A DNA stretch of 64,000 nucleotides from Shewanella oneidensis MR-1 (GTDB lineage Bacteria; Pseudomonadota; Gammaproteobacteria; Enterobacterales; Shewanellaceae), in assembly GCF_000146165.2 (NCBI RefSeq), contig NC_004347.2, positions 4,077,029 to 4,141,028 on the forward strand, read 5' to 3'. The notes below the pieces were generated by a model, which was not told the origin of the DNA, did not search any database, and saw nothing but the letters and a program-made list of their open reading frames with translations. The position numbers and the translations under genes are program-made. Shown piece after piece: positions 31,818-47,965 of the stretch. Every line of letters begins with the position of its first letter. The stretch's first letter is position 1.

Positions 31818-32317
31818 TTATGACCTCATAACATGATTGATGATGCTATTTACCTACGAAAAGGCAAAGGGCGTGGTAAGTCGCCAGAAGACACCATGAA
31901 AAAAATCGCAGTATATAAGCATTCTTTTTCGAGACAATCTTTAATCGTCGCGAAGCATTGTTTATCTGTGATGTAGGCCAAAACAATACCAACTCAATAC
32001 ATCTTCAAACCATCCCGTTAACATTTAGAGTAAAAGCACTGAAATAGTGCAGCCTGCACCGTTTCAGATACCAATAAAAATATAGACCGTTTAAAACCAC
32101 AAACTAAGATATTGATTATTAATAAAAATGCTACGATAAAAATATTGGCATGATTTTTACATAATAATAAATAGGTAGGTAGGTGAGCTGGGTCGACCAA
32201 GTCGTGTAACTCTCTACCTAATGCAAGCTGTTTGACACTGAAGGACGTTAATCTGAATGCCCGTTAGTCGGCATGTAAATCGACGCACAATCCCCAAATG
32301 GGATTGAGGAGGAAAAG
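31818..32317. other. intergenic region upstream of small ORFs
   Basis: About 500 bases, AT-rich up to 32160. Near its right end is a perfect 7-bp hairpin CAATCCC/GGGATTG at 32288-32306, immediately before the AGGAGG of a 32-codon ORF, so it could gate translation. No other feature is recognised. Confidence 0.45.
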
Positions 32318-32416
32318 ATGAAACATCTGATGAAATTAATTACCCATTGTCGCCACGAGTTATTGATCTTACGCCATGTAGGACATAGTCAGTGGGATAT
32401 TGAACAGCGCCACTAA
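32318..32416 (+). CDS. possible 32-residue peptide
   Basis: An ATG follows an exceptionally good ribosome-binding sequence (GAGGAGG, 32306-32312) and opens 32 codons beginning MKHLMKLITHC and ending WDIEQRH. The peptide has no recognised family; it is basic and His-rich. It precedes the HTH mini-protein by 70 bases on the same strand and may be co-transcribed or act as a leader. Coding status rests only on the start context. Confidence 0.4.
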   Translation: MKHLMKLITHCRHELLILRHVGHSQWDIEQRH

Positions 32417-32486: not shown

Positions 32487-32720
32487 ATGGGAATCGCCAA
32501 TCATAGTCTAAAACCTGACGTTATTTTTGAAGTAAAAGTCAAAGGCAGATTACTCTCTGATGTTGCTCGACAGTATGGTCTTTCAGCTAAATCCGTCTAC
32601 CAATGGGTCAGAGAAAGCGAGCAGCAACCTTCGCAGCGGGAATGTGCATTAATGAGTGAAATTGCGCAGCTACAAAAGCGCATTAAGCAACTTAATCATG
32701 AATTACGCACCATAGGCTAG
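32487..32720 (+). CDS. lone HTH_Tnp_1/OrfA-like mini-protein
   Basis: 77 residues. A helix-turn-helix (SDVARQYGLSAKSVYQWVRE, about 24-43) of the IS3 OrfA type is followed by a heptad-like leucine segment (LMSEIAQLQKRIKQLNHELRTI) that could dimerise. No OrfB integrase, terminal repeats or target duplication are visible, so it is either a remnant or a domesticated DNA-binding protein. GAGGA lies 8 bases upstream of the ATG. Two tandem structured hairpins follow on the same strand. Confidence 0.65.
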   Translation: MGIANHSLKPDVIFEVKVKGRLLSDVARQYGLSAKSVYQWVRESEQQPSQRECALMSEIAQLQKRIKQLNHELRTIG

Positions 32721-32741: not shown

Positions 32742-32843
32742 GACAAGGTCGGACGCCAACACATAGCGTCTTGAGGTCTGCAAGCGCCATGAGAGATGTG
32801 CAAATAACGATAATAACAGCGCCCTTTTATGTCCGGCCTTGTC
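32742..32843 (+). ncRNA. candidate structured RNA, tandem unit 1
   Basis: A 13-bp closing stem GACAAGGTCGGAC (32742-32754) with GTCCGGCCTTGTC (32831-32843), containing one T-G position. Inside are a short GACGC/GCGTC hairpin and the motif GTGCAAATAACGATAATAAC (32798-32817), which ends 13 bases before the 3' arm. Unit 2 has the same layout. No ORF overlaps it. Biological class unknown. Confidence 0.55.
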
Positions 32844-32915
32844 ATCAATGATTGAAATTAGGCATATCCCCAAACAACATGAAGATGCAGGATTCAGGGG
32901 AAATGTAACAGTTTA

Positions 32916-33015
32916 GACAGAGTCGGATGGGTATCTATTATCGCTCCCCAACGACCTAAGATAAAAATCGTACAAATAACAATAATAACTGTGCAATTGA
33001 CTATCCGGCTCTGTC
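32916..33015 (+). ncRNA. candidate structured RNA, tandem unit 2
   Basis: A 13-bp closing stem GACAGAGTCGGAT (32916-32928) with ATCCGGCTCTGTC (33003-33015). Three base pairs differ from unit 1 and each change is compensated on the opposite arm. The motif GTACAAATAACAATAATAAC (32970-32989) matches unit 1 at 18 of 20 positions and again ends 13 bases before the 3' arm. Confidence 0.55.
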
Positions 33016-33058: not shown

Positions 33059-33152
33059 GGCAAGACTTTAGAGGGAGTCATCTCCCCCAAAGATCAAATA
33101 TGTGAATTGTACTCCCCCAAGTCACCAACATATTGCCCTCTGGGGTCTTGTC
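33059..33152. repeat. long stem-loop with two CTCCCCCAA repeats
   Basis: CAAGAC (33061-33066) pairs with GTCTTG (33145-33150) and AGAGGG with CCCTCT just inside. The loop carries CTCCCCCAA twice and can form an alternative GGGAG/CTCCC hairpin. No coding potential. Confidence 0.45.
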
Positions 33153-33324: not shown

Positions 33325-33352
33325 AAGACGTTCATCGAGCGTCAGTTTTTAT
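33325..33352 (-). terminator. terminator of RIO kinase gene
   Basis: A-tract, GACG/CGTC stem and T run directly downstream of the RIO kinase stop on the minus strand; the stem is short. Confidence 0.55.
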
Positions 33353-36076: not shown

Positions 36077-36336
36077 TTATTTATCCCATAACCAAACACC
36101 TCGGTTCGAGATTAAGGATAAATTCTTATCAAAAACTTAAGTAATTTAACGCCTGAAAATAACAAATATTTTACACACTTTAAAAAGCGGCGTTGGGATT
36201 AAAAACCAAAAGAAATAAAAAGACTATAGTGAATTAATAGTAATGTGCTTTATGGATGAGCCTCCAATGCCCTATAACTTCGCACTCCAACAGTCGCAAA
36301 AAGATCGGTTATTCGCAGATATGGCTATCGATACTA

Positions 36337-36600
36337 GGGCGTGTTGACGTTTCAGGGTTATTTTTGCAGCAATTTGGCTGGCATTTATGCAAGGCAAAGT
36401 CCGTGCTGTGTAGTTATTCTACATAAACGGACGATAACGCAGCAGAAACGTCAGCCAAATGCTGCCCGAAGGGTTCGTCTGGCAAGCCCATGCTCTTTGT
36501 CACTCGTCATTTGAGTAGAATAACTACACATCATTCCTCGTTTCGCGAGCACGAGCTTGCCAGAACGAACAAAATTTAATCTCGAAACGTCAACACGCCC
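36337..36600 (+). mobile_element. MITE copy 1 (264 bp)
   Basis: Perfect 17-bp terminal inverted repeats GGGCGTGTTGACGTTTC, TA duplicated on both sides (36335-36336 and 36601-36602). No ORF of its own. The interior holds several inverted pairs (GTAGTTATTCTAC/GTAGAATAACTAC; CAGCAATTTGGCTG/CAGCCAAATGCTG; GTTCGTCTGGCAAG/CTTGCCAGAACGAAC), so the whole element can fold. Confidence 0.93.
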
Positions 36601-37300
36601 TAGTAAGATCATGGTGCCGTCAGAAATGCTGGAGAGCTGGCAACAAACCTTAGATTTGTTGTCGGAGATTGTGGATACCCCCGCTGTACTGATTATGCGA
36701 GTTCACCCCACTGAAATCGAAGTATTTGCTTCAAGTCACAGCCAAGGGAATCCCTATAAACCAAAGGATAAAGAGCATTTAGGCCATGGACTCTACTGTG
36801 AGACAGTGATGAAAGAATGCCGAGAACTCCATATCTCCAACGCGCTGAAAGATGCTGATTGGGATAACAATCCCGACATTAAGCTGGGTATGATAGCCTA
36901 CTGTGGCCTGCCCTTGCATTGGCCAGATGGCAGCACGTTTGGCACTATTTGCATGCTCGATAGTAAAGAACATAGCTATAGTCAACAGTTTCGTAATTTG
37001 CTGGCGCGGTTTCAAAATGCTATTGAAACCAACCTTATCACCCTATTTCAGCAGGCAAAACTGCAACTACATAATCAGCAACTTGAACAAAAAGTACAGC
37101 AACGTACCCACGAACTGGCTGAACTCAGTGCAAAATTAATCCGAGAAATCGAAACGCGCACAACAACCGAAAACACATTGGAATACCACAAGAGCTACGA
37201 TCCCCTGACAGGGTTACCTAATAGACCCAATTTGATTAATACCTTAGCGCGCATGCTGGAAGACATTAATCGTAAAGAAAAAATTTCAGTCCTTTATCTA

Positions 37301-37579
37301 GGGCGTGTTAACGTTTCAGGGTTATTTTTGCAGCAATTTGGCTGGCTTTTATGCAAGTCAAAGTCCGTGCAGTGTAGTTATTCTACATAAACGGACGATA
37401 ACGCGGCAGAAAAGCCAGCCAAATGCTGCCCGAAGGGTTCGTCTGGCAAGCCCTTGCTCTTACTTTCTGTCATAAGAGCAGCTCGTCATTTGAGTAGAAT
37501 AACTACACATCATTCCTCGTTTCGCGAGCACGTGCTTGCCAGAACGAACAAAATCTAATCTCGAAACGTCAACACGCCC
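37301..37579 (+). mobile_element. MITE copy 2 (279 bp)
   Basis: Same orientation as copy 1, with TA at 37299-37300 and 37580-37581. Left repeat has one change (GTTAACG for GTTGACG). It is 15 bp longer than copies 1 and 3 because of extra sequence near 37462-37480. Confidence 0.93.
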
Positions 37580-38533
37580 TAGGCTTACGTAACTTTAAGT
37601 CCATTAATGATAGTTACGGCTATTTGATCGGTGATAAAGTCCTCGCCATTCTTGGGCAACGATTACAGCATAACACTCACAATGACACCTTTATCGCCCG
37701 AATGGCAGGCGCTGAGTTTGTGTTAGTCCAAGCCTATCAACCCTCAGAAATTGAGACAAATAAGCTTATTAATCAAATCATCAACTGCTGCCACTCTCCT
37801 GTTGGCATCGCCAATACATTGATTAGTCTTCACTGCTCAATTGGCATAGCACAAGCACCAAACGATGGCATTGACGCCGCGACACTGCTGCAAAAAGCGG
37901 GCGCTGCCATGAACATCAGTAAAGCGGAAGGCTTAGCTTATACGCATTTTGATCAGCAGACACAAAGGGCACTGAGTCAGCGCTATCTGCTGGAATCTCA
38001 TTTAATCGAAGCCCTCAAAAGGAATGAGTTTAGCCTACATTACCAACCCATTATCGAACTCAACACCCGTAACGTTATCGGCGCCGAAGCCCTCTTACGC
38101 TGGCATAATCCGGTTTTAGGCTCTGTTACGCCGGATCAATTTATTCCATTAGCAGAGCGCAATGGTCAAATCATGGAAATAGGTAACTTTGTACTCCACT
38201 CGACCATTCAACAAACCGCGAACTGGTGCAATATGTTGCAGCGAGAATTTAAAATCGCCATCAATATCTCCCCTATCCAAATGCGTAACCCTCGCTTTGC
38301 CGAACATATTGCCGAACTATTAACTCTCTATCAGTTACCCGCAACCGCCCTTGAGCTAGAAATAACCGAAGGTATGCTGCTGCAAGATGAACATTTAGCC
38401 CATAACGCAATTCACCAACTACGGGAACTCGGCGTCAGTATTTCACTTGATGACTTTGGTACGGGCTACTCCTCCTTAAGTTATCTACAAAAGTATGCCT
38501 TCGATACTTTGAAAATTGACCGCTGTTTTATTA

Positions 38534-38797
38534 GGGCGTGTTGACGTTTCGAGATTAAATTTTGTTCGTTCTGGCAAGCTCGTGCTCGCGAAACGAGGAA
38601 TGATGTGTAGTTATTCTACTCAAATGACGAGTGACAAAGAGCAAGGGCTTGCCAGACGAACCCTTCTGGCAGCATTTGGCTGGCTTTTCTGCCGCGTTAT
38701 CGTCCGTTTATGTAGAATAACTACACTGCACGGACTTTGCCTTGCATAAAAGCTAGCCAAATTGCTGCAAAAATAACCCTGAAACGTCAACACGCCC
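38534..38797 (-). mobile_element. MITE copy 3 (264 bp, inverted)
   Basis: Same element in opposite orientation, perfect 17-bp terminal repeats, TA at 38532-38533 and 38798-38799. Its left flank ATTA, rather than CTAG, shows that the duplicated target is the dinucleotide TA. Confidence 0.93.
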
Positions 38798-39121
38798 TAG
38801 TAAACTCGAAAATAGTGAACAGGGCCGAGAACTCACTAAAGCCATTATTGCGATAGGAAAAAAGCTCAAACTTAAGGTGATAGCTGAAGGGGTAGAAAAT
38901 CCCTATCAGGATGCCTTTATCTGCAATGAGGACTGCAATTACGGCCAGGGCTACCTGTATGGCAAACCGGTTACGCCAGAACAGTTCGAGCGGGACTTTA
39001 TCAATCTCGCGTCCAAGTAGTTCAACAAAACAAAATGGTTTTAATCATGTGAGCTTCGCATGAATTGTGTGATTCATAGAGATCATTTCAATGTTCTTAG
39101 CTCTAATTCAATCTGCAATAA

Positions 39122-43890: not shown

Positions 43891-44856
43891 ATGCACGATG
43901 GATTTATTTACAGCCTAGTCCTAAGTGGCGAACAGGCAGGCTCAACCTTAAGTCCTGAACAACTTGACAACTGGGACCCTAAAGATGGGCTGGTTTGGAT
44001 ACACCTGCGTTATCGCCACAAAAAAGCCCGCCATTGGGTATTACACTGCGGTCTCAACAAAGTCGAATCTGATGCACTACTCGCCGAAGATACCCGCCCT
44101 CGAACCGTGCTGGCTGGTGAAGGGGTACTGCTCGCCCTGCGCGGCGTTAACTTAAACCCAGATTCGGCCCCTGAAGACATGGTGGCCGTTCGTATTTATG
44201 CTGATAACCAGCGCATAATATCTACCTGCGAGCGCGAGCTTCAGTCAGTTAAGGATGTCGCGGGTTCGATTATGGCAGGAACAGGCCCCACTACCACTGG
44301 CGACTTTATCGTTGCCATTTGTGAAAGGCTCACCATACGAAAAGTGGATTTTATCGATACGCTTGAGGAACAGCTTTTAGAATTAGAAGAACAAGTTGTC
44401 TCTGGCAATGTTAAAGATTTACGCACAGATATCGCCGAGCTGCGTCGGCAAACCGTAGCGCTGCGCCGCTATTTAGGCCCCCAGAAAGAAGCTTTCGCTA
44501 AGATGCTATCGGAGCAATTTGTGCTCTTTAACGAGCCCGAAAAACTCAAAATGCGTGAAACAACCAACAATCTTATCCGTACTATTGAAGACTTAGACGC
44601 ACTACGCGACAGGGCCAATGTGACTCAAGAAGAATTACTCAGTCAACAATCAGAGCAGTTAAATAAACGGTTGTATTTTTTGTCATTAGTATCGGTAATC
44701 TTTCTTCCATTGGGCTTTTTAACTGGATTACTTGGGGTAAACATTGGCGGTATTCCTGGCGCGGATAACAATTTTGCCTTTACCAGCTTTTGCATCATTT
44801 TAGTCTCGCTTGTTGCCCTACAAATGGTCATTCTCTATCGATTTAAGTGGCTATAA
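43891..44856 (+). CDS. zntB: zinc transporter ZntB (CorA family)
   Basis: About 321-residue CorA-superfamily channel. A long cytoplasmic funnel domain (1-255) with the long stalk helix is followed by two C-terminal transmembrane helices. The pore-loop GxN motif reads GVNIGGIPG, the ZntB variant of the CorA GMN. In E. coli and Salmonella ZntB moves zinc. I prefer the ATG at MHDGFIYSL, with GGAA upstream; the frame is open to 43879. Confidence 0.92.
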   Translation: MHDGFIYSLVLSGEQAGSTLSPEQLDNWDPKDGLVWIHLRYRHKKARHWVLHCGLNKVESDALLAEDTRPRTVLAGEGVLLALRGVNLNPDSAPEDMVAVRIYADNQRIISTCERELQSVKDVAGSIMAGTGPTTTGDFIVAICERLTIRKVDFIDTLEEQLLELEEQVVSGNVKDLRTDIAELRRQTVALRRYLGPQKEAFAKMLSEQFVLFNEPEKLKMRETTNNLIRTIEDLDALRDRANVTQEELLSQQSEQLNKRLYFLSLVSVIFLPLGFLTGLLGVNIGGIPGADNNFAFTSFCIILVSLVALQMVILYRFKWL

Positions 44857-47397: not shown

Positions 47398-47554
47398 TAG
47401 CGCACCTCCGCAAAAGCAAGAGATACGATACAAACTTCAATAACAGATTGATTAACTAACATGATTACGCTCCGAACTAACTTCGTTCGAAGAGCCTGGT
47501 GCTCAATGATACGCACCCCAAAAGAAGGGAAACAGCAATCGTCACCAGAAGCTC

Positions 47555-47710
47555 TCCACCAATTACAGGTGACAATCGTTAGGATTCAGCCTAAGCGACC
47601 GACATAAACATGCAGCAACCACATCTATGCCTCGGCGCTAATCTCCCTCATCAATCATCGCTGGAGTTTGTGCTCCTCTGATTGACTACCTAGTTAACGC
47701 TCCTCTTCTG
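47555..47710 (-). promoter_or_regulatory. lysine riboswitch (L box) upstream of lysC
   Basis: Read on the minus strand the leader has the L-box core in order: AGAGGAGCG, then CAGAGGAGCACAAACTCC, TGAGGGAGATTAGCGCCGAGG, GTCGGTCGCTTAGGCTGAATCCTAACGATTGTCACC in pieces (47710 down to about 47562). It is followed by a GTCACC/GGTGAC hairpin that could be the expression platform. Without a strong poly-U terminator, control may be at translation initiation as well as termination. Confidence 0.88.
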
Positions 47711-47965
47711 TTCCTTTCCGCCGGAAAGGGACGAAAAAAGTAGCAATAAACCCCTAATGAAGTCAATGCTAATTTCACACCTGATAAACAAATTCAATAA
47801 ACGCTTTTAAAAACAATGGGGATTTATGGACCAAAGCAAAAAGAAACGAGAAAACAGTATAGGCTTGATGTGGAATTCAATGGATTTAAAAAAACACTCA
47901 CCAAGCCTTGCTGTGAGAGAGCAAAGCCTAGTCAGAAAAAATAGCTAAAAAAGAGTAAGCTGTAG
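47711..47965. other. intergenic region, lysC promoter side
   Basis: About 255 bases between the lysine riboswitch and the DUF3293 gene. It includes an inverted repeat TTTCCGCC/GGCGGAAA near 47714-47731 and otherwise AT-rich sequence; no gene is supported. Confidence 0.4.

What the first reader, a model, noticed from the sequence alone, without database searches (positions are those of the whole stretch)
32742..33015. Two tandem ~100-nt hairpins with covarying 13-bp closing stems and a shared inner motif
Seen directly: unit 1 (32742-32843) and unit 2 (32916-33015) each have a 13-bp closing stem. Three stem positions differ between units and all three are compensated on the opposite arm. Both keep the same single T-G position, which is a stable U-G pair if the + strand is transcribed but an A-C mismatch if the - strand is, so the RNA is most likely + strand. 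Both contain GTrCAAATAACrATAATAAC (18 of 20 identical) ending exactly 13 bases before the 3' arm. I know no RNA family with this layout. It lies just after a lone HTH mini-protein on the same strand, so an RNA-protein or regulator-target pair is possible. A short MITE is a weaker alternative, because no target duplication is visible.
Basis: seen in the sequence. Interest (0 to 1): 0.8.

Follow-up and report, generated by a model that had tools for sequence, protein, structure and literature searches.

The report
Nitrogen-controlled RNA hairpin array in Shewanella
Behind two tiny genes, many Shewanella bacteria carry one or more RNA hairpins of about 100 bases that match no catalogued RNA family and sit behind the control signals of genes switched on when nitrogen runs short, which points to an undescribed layer of gene control in a model genus.

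Summary
Units 1 and 2 are homologous members of a structured RNA family with no Rfam match. A third unit follows at 33059-33152. In 64 of 88 congeneric loci, 120 units (1-5 per locus) lie on the same strand within 2 kb behind a 77-aa HTH gene. The outer closing stem has 95% of cells paired and double changes in 11 of 12 pairs; the whole structure is 86% paired against 34-44% in slid controls. G-U pairs outnumber A-C 23 to 2, so the RNA is on the + strand. Most units show a C-rich loop and an AAnAAn stretch. A conserved smORF precedes the HTH gene. Upstream, 81 of 88 loci have a sigma54-like element, 40 of these also an NtrC-type box (median 111 bp apart); the same box precedes glnA and ntrBC here. 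R1 found no unit in 364 other-genus genomes of the order or 320 of the class. Best explanation: an NtrC/RpoN-induced operon whose 3' array is a multivalent regulatory RNA, working like NrsZ or CrcZ but belonging to neither. Expression, targets and partner are untested. The MITE reading is rejected; an RNA-HTH pair is weakened by a genome that lost the HTH but kept promoter, smORF and hairpins.

The parts
32035..32051 (.). NtrC-type enhancer box AGCACTGAAATAGTGCA (9 of 10 core letters); a further half site TGCACC lies at 32055-32060
   Evidence: Taken alone the core GCAC-N7-GTGC is not rare (2 in the window, 1.17 expected); its weight comes from its conserved place. Perfect boxes lie before glnA and ntrB of this genome
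32145..32163 (+). sigma54-like -24/-12 promoter element TTGGCATGATTTTTACATA (GG-N10-AC)
   Evidence: related element in 81 of 88 loci
32318..32416 (+). smORF of 32 aa (MKHLMKLITHCRHELLILRHVGHSQWDIEQRH) behind GGAGG; motif HLGxSQWDVE conserved
   Evidence: no Pfam or NCBIfam match
32487..32720 (+). 77-aa HTH_Tnp_1 mini-protein (resembles the IS3 OrfA N-terminus; no orfB seen beside it), under purifying selection
32742..32843 (+). unit 1: 13-bp closing stem (32742-32754 / 32831-32843), A-rich motif 32798-32817; no CCCC loop in this species
   Evidence: found by model R1 (44.6 bits) although not in its training set
32864..32900 (.). copy of a dispersed Shewanella repeat between units 1 and 2; not part of the RNA family
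32916..33015 (+). unit 2: closing stem 32916-32928 / 33003-33015, C-rich loop CUCCCCAA 32944-32951, A-rich motif 32970-32989
33059..33152 (+). unit 3: 17-bp closing stem 33059-33075 / 33136-33152, CUCCCC at 33082 and 33112; a second copy in several related species
   Evidence: found by the stem finder and by eye, not by R1
33327..33343 (+). intrinsic-terminator-like hairpin followed by a T run, possible 3' end of the transcript
   Evidence: 2 found on both strands against 1.2 expected, so weak alone

Best explanation
It is a nitrogen-stress regulatory RNA operon. NtrC, bound about 110 bp upstream of the -24 element, activates RpoN (sigma54) RNA polymerase at 32145-32163. The transcript of about 1.2 kb encodes a 32-aa peptide and a 77-aa HTH protein. 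It ends in an array of three-way-junction hairpin units, each closed by a long stem; most display a C-rich apical loop and an AAnAAn stretch. Processed or whole, the array acts in trans as a multivalent regulatory RNA: either a decoy for an RNA-binding protein (Hfq is the first candidate for the AAn repeats), or C-rich loops that pair with G-rich ribosome-binding sites. Shown: the RNA family, its + strand structure, its fixed place behind the two genes, and the promoter and enhancer sequences. Inferred from sequence: NtrC/RpoN control and a transcript of the whole operon. Inferred by analogy: trans action and the nature of the partner.
For: Closing stem: on an alignment made without structure, 12 of 14 pairs have changes on both sides and 95.9% of cells pair, while slid versions of the whole structure pair 37-45% against 83.2%. 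On 106 distinct matches: 11 of 12 outer pairs with double changes, 95.2% paired (that alignment is fitted to the model). Strand: G-U 23 against A-C 2 in 43 distinct stems of 78 loci, found with equal penalties. Place: 120 of 121 model matches in 88 loci lie on the HTH strand within 2 kb behind it; in 129 genomes 100 of 103 do. Promoter: sigma54-like element in 81 of 88 loci, background 0.009 per 650 nt, 2 of 88 on the opposite strand. NtrC box in 41 of 88, background 0.008, 40 of them with the element; 42 spacings cluster at 91, 100, 109-111 and 120-122 bp, as helical phasing predicts. The only two perfect boxes in this genome precede glnA and ntrB-ntrC. Array design: CCCC in the interior of 84 of 105 distinct units (mean 14.7 in shuffles), AAnAAnAA in 79 of 105 (mean 15.4). 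G061 keeps promoter, smORF and units 1 and 3 without an HTH match.
Against: No expression data were seen. In this species the -12 element reads AC instead of GC, the box has 9 of 10 core letters, and its core alone is not rare in the window. 47 of 88 loci have no box at this cut-off; another enhancer-binding protein could read it. A stricter promoter pattern, used first, matched 36 of 88; it was loosened after reading more upstream stretches. Near relatives share spacing, so spacings are not independent. In one search two of five measures do not stand out from shuffles (pairs with double change 15 against 12.0, reached by 22 of 500; further pair types 30 against 32.3, reached by 457 of 500). 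The C-loop stem P2 is only partly consistent (53% of cells, 69%). Unit 1 of this species has no CCCC loop. 21 of 105 units lack CCCC and 26 of 105 lack AAnAAnAA. 24 of 88 loci have no R1 match. No target or partner was identified.
Confidence: 0.58

Rival explanations
1. The units act only in cis: a structured 3' UTR bound by the HTH protein or the smORF peptide, so that the operon controls its own mRNA.
For: smORF, HTH and units are mostly together; a small protein encoded beside repeated hairpins suits autoregulation.
Against: G061 keeps smORF, promoter and hairpins without an HTH match. A group of 11 loci (L069, L071-L074, L076, L078, L080, L082, L083, L085) keeps HTH and units without a recognisable smORF. 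Up to five R1 copies in a locus are more than a simple cis element needs, although 31 of 64 loci have one.
Confidence: 0.22
2. The inverted repeats are DNA sites (iteron-like or operator-like) for the HTH protein and the RNA fold is incidental.
For: An HTH protein sits next to repeated inverted sequences with similar ends, mostly GRCARG and CYUGYC.
Against: G-U outnumbers A-C 23 to 2 in the stems, which DNA binding does not predict; loop sequences are conserved; arms vary between clades but keep pairing; G061 keeps hairpins without an HTH match.
Confidence: 0.07
3. Type III toxin-antitoxin-like module: the tandem RNA is the antitoxin and a small protein is the toxin.
For: Tandem structured RNA repeats beside small ORFs.
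Against: No endoribonuclease match: the 77-aa protein is an HTH and three smORF peptides match no family; the array follows the proteins; a sigma54/NtrC promoter is unusual for such modules (recalled).
Confidence: 0.04
4. A MITE or debris of an IS3-like element.
For: HTH_Tnp_1 match and inverted repeats.
Against: Units are not dispersed: 100 of 103 whole-genome matches lie behind the HTH gene, one between the same neighbour genes without it, two on other contigs, one of these at a contig end. No orfB beside the HTH in the window, dN/dS below 0.1 in the pairs where dS was finite, no DNA match in the plasmid or phage collections. The repeat at 32864-32900 is the dispersed one. Target duplications were not looked for.
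Confidence: 0.02

Closest known systems
NrsZ (Pseudomonas aeruginosa nitrogen-regulated sRNA)
   Same: Induced by NtrB/C with RpoN under nitrogen limitation, has stem-loops and is processed to shorter RNAs (review PMC9308961, passages); tandem repetition of its stem-loops is recalled.
   Different: Motif ACAGGCAG is absent from 120 of 120 units; NrsZ lies by ntrC, this does not; units are about 100-nt three-way junctions behind two coding smORFs; R1 had no match in 320 other-genus genomes of the class sample, though whether these include Pseudomonas is not shown.
CrcZ/CrcY (Pseudomonas Hfq/Crc decoy RNAs)
   Same: Decoys that sequester Hfq/Crc, which acts at AAnAAnAA (CA) motifs (PMC12533007, passages); their own CA motifs and sigma54-type control are recalled.
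   Different: Controlled by CbrAB, whereas here the boxes are NtrC-type; no C-rich-loop junction in CrcZ (recalled); Hfq binding untested here.
GlnZ (enterobacterial glnA 3' UTR sRNA)
   Same: An sRNA from the 3' UTR of an NtrC/RpoN-driven mRNA, released by RNase E (PMC9731577, passages).
   Different: Host gene differs; no repeat array is described in the passages seen; sequences were not compared.
RsaE/RoxS and CsrB/RsmZ type RNAs
   Same: C-rich motifs acting on ribosome-binding sites, or repeated loops titrating a protein (recalled; listing only).
   Different: Gram-positive or GacA-controlled (recalled); the loops here are CCCCA-like, not GGA; sequences were not compared beyond the Rfam scan.

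Membership tests
Any Rfam family (release 15) | score at or above a family's gathering cut-off | tested here: not met
   (window, where the only match is a lysine riboswitch elsewhere, and 14 loci); with E up to 5 gave two unrelated chance-level matches
NrsZ | NtrC/RpoN-type control region | tested here: met
   sequence only:
NrsZ | conserved motif ACAGGCAG | tested here: not met
   0 of 120 units; the one window match is at 43932
NrsZ | encoded downstream of ntrC | tested here: not met
   ntrC of this genome is at about 4.66 Mb, the array at 4.11 Mb
CrcZ/CrcY | several AAnAAnAA motifs | tested here: met
   79 of 105 distinct units; units 1 and 2 of the window
CrcZ/CrcY | Hfq/Crc binding and CbrB control | not testable with these tools
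   no binding data available
Type III toxin-antitoxin | endoribonuclease toxin next to the repeat RNA | tested here: not met
MITE or IS3 element | dispersed copies and an intact transposase | tested here: not met
   no orfB beside the HTH in the window
MITE or IS3 element | target site duplications | not tested
   no copies away from the locus to compare

The most novel reading that the evidence does not exclude
A Shewanella-specific, nitrogen-starvation-induced modular RNA sponge. Tandem junction units, whose number per genome varies, each offer a C-rich loop and an AAn-repeat, titrating Hfq or G-rich ribosome-binding sites in proportion to copy number, with a co-transcribed peptide and a domesticated transposase HTH as further outputs of the same NtrC/RpoN switch.
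Probability: 0.3. Interest if true: 0.82.

Novelty: new variant of a known kind. Interest (0 to 1): 0.72.

Why it matters
Nitrogen-responsive small RNAs are known in few bacteria (recalled). Here an RNA family absent from Rfam, with strong covariation, sits in a workhorse genus behind a recognisable NtrC/RpoN control region. Two small proteins, one apparently domesticated from a transposase, are in the same operon. Because unit number varies between species, it offers a natural dosage series for testing how repeat RNAs titrate their partners. The prediction is testable with one Northern blot and three deletions.

Tried and rejected
Rejected: MITE; DNA operator array; type III toxin-antitoxin; NrsZ membership (motif test failed); a homologue of the module outside the genus. 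In the order sample (394 genomes, 14 best candidates scored each) the HTH profile matched other genera; 14 of those places were fetched (L104-L116, L123) and showed no smORF scoring above chance level and no units by eye; several are IS3 OrfA with orfB-like reading behind, others are small HTH proteins. A joint RNAalifold on 47 diverse units aligned by MAFFT gave no common fold because the arms were misaligned; clade-wise alignments and the 16-unit alignment A7 solved this. CsrA-like GGA loops on the - strand were considered and dropped, since the strand test favours + and several loops have no GGA. A permutation test on stem arms is biased, because the arms were chosen for pairing. Paper searches listed nothing that I could tie to this locus; the library lacks most subscription papers and only part of each hit list was shown. 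PMC5471319 (passages only) predicts 217 sRNAs in S. oneidensis; whether this locus is among them could not be checked.

Rows dropped: of 99 genomes with an HTH match, 88 loci were analysed, taken mainly from the top scores down; four of them (L135-L138) were added because R1 had matched their genomes, which favours the unit count slightly. The reverse-strand match L084:3177-3297 was left out of unit counts but is one row of the alignment counted. 24 of the 88 loci have no R1 match at E 0.01; in some of these (L063, L065, L066, L074, L077, L090) related hairpins were seen. Whole-genome R1 searches scored only the 32 (genus), 10 (order) or 12 (class) best candidates per genome with strict filters, so absence is not proof; all 16 positive congeners in the order sample were positive in both runs.

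Full report
Observation. Both hairpins are exactly where described: 13-bp closing stems, three compensated differences, one shared T-G pair, and the 18-of-20 inner motif ending 13 bases before each 3' arm. Both fold far better than shuffles on the + strand (z -3.5 and -5.6). A third hairpin with a 17-bp closing stem follows at 33059-33152 (z -3.7). All six non-Watson-Crick closing pairs of the three units are G-U on the + strand.

Where it occurs. The genome is 5.13 Mb in two contigs; by size, which I recall, it is S. oneidensis MR-1. A DNA search of 129 congeneric genomes (5 best candidates scored in each) matched 48, many of them only through the dispersed repeat between units 1 and 2. Nine matched the whole tandem, own genome included; four matched most of it and five the 3' part of unit 1. 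In these the tandem lies between an OmpA-like lipoprotein gene and a RIO1-type kinase gene (gene names read from the translations). The 77-aa HTH protein matches Pfam HTH_Tnp_1 and, below its cut-off, the IS3 transposase model of NCBIfam. It has relatives in 99 of 129 congeneric genomes at E 1e-3, the weakest of which are probably true IS3 OrfA. I analysed 88 such loci. Named holders of the HTH gene include S. decolorationis, S. xiamenensis, S. oncorhynchi, S. hafniensis, S. profunda, S. salipaludis and S. kaireitica (12 loci).

The operon. Mostly 110-370 bases upstream of the HTH lies a small ORF of 28 to about 70 aa (32 here) with a conserved stretch HLGxSQWDVE and synonymous variation. A strict motif count finds it in 63 of 88 loci; nine more show it in the ORFs printed by the same call and one more (L062). 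Three such peptides have no Pfam or NCBIfam match. HTH dN/dS is 0.02-0.06 in the four of seven pairs where dS was finite.

The RNA family. In other clades the sequence of the closing stem is quite different (GGCAAGGATGT, GCAGAGGTAAAAG, GACAGGAGCGAACCT) yet still pairs. On a 16-unit MAFFT alignment made without structure, 12 of 14 closing-stem pairs have double changes and 95.9% of cells are paired. The whole structure is 83.2% paired, against 37-45% in slid controls and 66.7% in shuffles; two of five shuffle measures do not stand out. A covariance model (R1) found 121 matches in the 88 loci, 120 of them on the HTH strand within 2 kb behind it, 1-5 per locus, in 64 of 88 loci. It found unit 1 of the window, which was not in its training set. 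On these matches 11 of 12 outer pairs show double changes. In whole genomes it found 103 matches in 56 of 129 congeneric genomes. 100 lie behind the HTH gene, two are on other contigs (one at a contig end), and one (G061) is between the same neighbour genes without the HTH. It found none in 364 other-genus genomes of the order (394 searched, 30 congeneric) or 320 of the class sample; these searches scored only 10 and 12 candidates per genome. No Rfam family matches. A 441-base DNA query had no match in the plasmid or phage collections.

Strand. With G-U and A-C penalised alike, 43 distinct closing stems from 78 loci contain 23 G-U and 2 A-C. That is expected for RNA of the + strand and not for DNA sites or a - strand RNA; related sequences are not independent, so this is a count, not a probability.

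Anatomy of a unit. P1 closes the unit. P2 carries a C-rich loop ((U)CCCC(C/A)A(A/G)). An A-rich arm often ends in GYGC. CCCC is in the interior of 84 of 105 distinct units (mean 14.7, largest 24, in 200 single-base shuffles of the interior), AAnAAnAA in 79 (mean 15.4, largest 28), and the AAnAA...GYGC signature in 83 (mean 2.2, largest 7). P2 is less regular than P1 (53-69% of cells paired). TTTT occurs within 14 nt after 39 of 105 units and within 14 nt before 25 of 105, against 8.7% of control 14-mers.

Control region. A strict pattern TGGCA(C/T)-N5-TT(A/G)C matched upstream of 36 of 88 loci. After reading other upstream stretches a wider one, TGGCAN-N4-..CAT, matched 81 of 88 (background 0.009 per 650 nt; 2 of 88 on the other strand of the same stretches). 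So the wider pattern was drawn up after seeing some of these sequences. In 41 of 88 a box with at least 9 of 10 letters of TGCAC-N7-GTGCA lies upstream (background 0.008), 40 of them together with the element. The 42 spacings run from 69 to 125 with clusters at 91, 100, 109-111 and 120-122 bp, one helical turn apart; near relatives share values. The only two perfect boxes in the genome precede glnA and ntrB-ntrC (identified from their translations), and glnA also has a TTGGCATGGATATCGC element behind its box (read by eye). So the box is that of NtrC (consensus recalled). In the window the element is 32145-32163 (0 expected) and the box 32035-32051, whose core alone is not rare (2 in the window, 1.17 expected).

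A natural experiment. G061 (L134) has a box-like GGCACCAAAAGAGTGCA, the -24/-12 element, the smORF and units 1 and 3 (unit 1 by R1, the rest read by eye), but no HTH match. So RNA, smORF and promoter can be kept without the HTH.

Mechanism. Shown: a + strand structured RNA family, fixed behind the two small genes. Suggested by sequence: RpoN transcription under NtrC. Inferred: the array acts in trans. Repeated display loops suit titration of a partner. AAnAAnAA is the CA motif bound by Hfq in Pseudomonas (PMC12533007, passages). C-rich loops could instead pair with G-rich ribosome-binding sites. I cannot choose between these.

Known relatives. NrsZ shares the nitrogen control (PMC9308961, passages), but its motif is missing. 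CrcZ shares the A-rich motif but belongs to CbrAB. GlnZ shows that an NtrC/RpoN mRNA can release an sRNA from its 3' UTR (PMC9731577, passages). Two regulon papers on Shewanella and Proteobacteria (PMC3223726, PMC5343134; passages) list NtrC regulation; the passages seen do not mention this locus.

Limits. No transcript data, no binding data, one genus, and 88 of 99 HTH-bearing genomes analysed in detail.

Noticed in passing
window 32864-32900: Copy of a short dispersed repeat (TATACCCAAACAACTTGAAGATGCAGGATTCAG type) matched at many places in Shewanella genomes; here it sits between units 1 and 2 and is absent there in L004-L012.
   Followed up: partly
window 36332-36560, 37298-37539, 38574-38802 (-): Three copies (90-97% alike) of a repeat of about 230 bp; by eye two lie inside what looks like a GGDEF/EAL-type gene around 36557-39020 and may interrupt it.
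   Followed up: no
window 47541-47715 (-): Lysine riboswitch aptamer (Rfam RF00168, 92 bits).
   Followed up: no
L047 and L048 between units; part seen in L053 and L057: A second, shorter hairpin (GGCGTTATTGG ... CCCCAG ... CCAATAACGTC, then a T run) alternates with the main units and also has a CCCC loop.
   Followed up: no
L134 (G061): Locus that kept promoter, smORF and units 1 and 3 but has no HTH match.
   Followed up: partly
L089, L095, L117, L120, L121, behind the HTH gene: A different conserved non-coding stretch (GCAGGAAGC ... GGGCAGCA) followed by a hairpin with a CCCCCAAAG loop; possibly a diverged form of the array.
   Followed up: no
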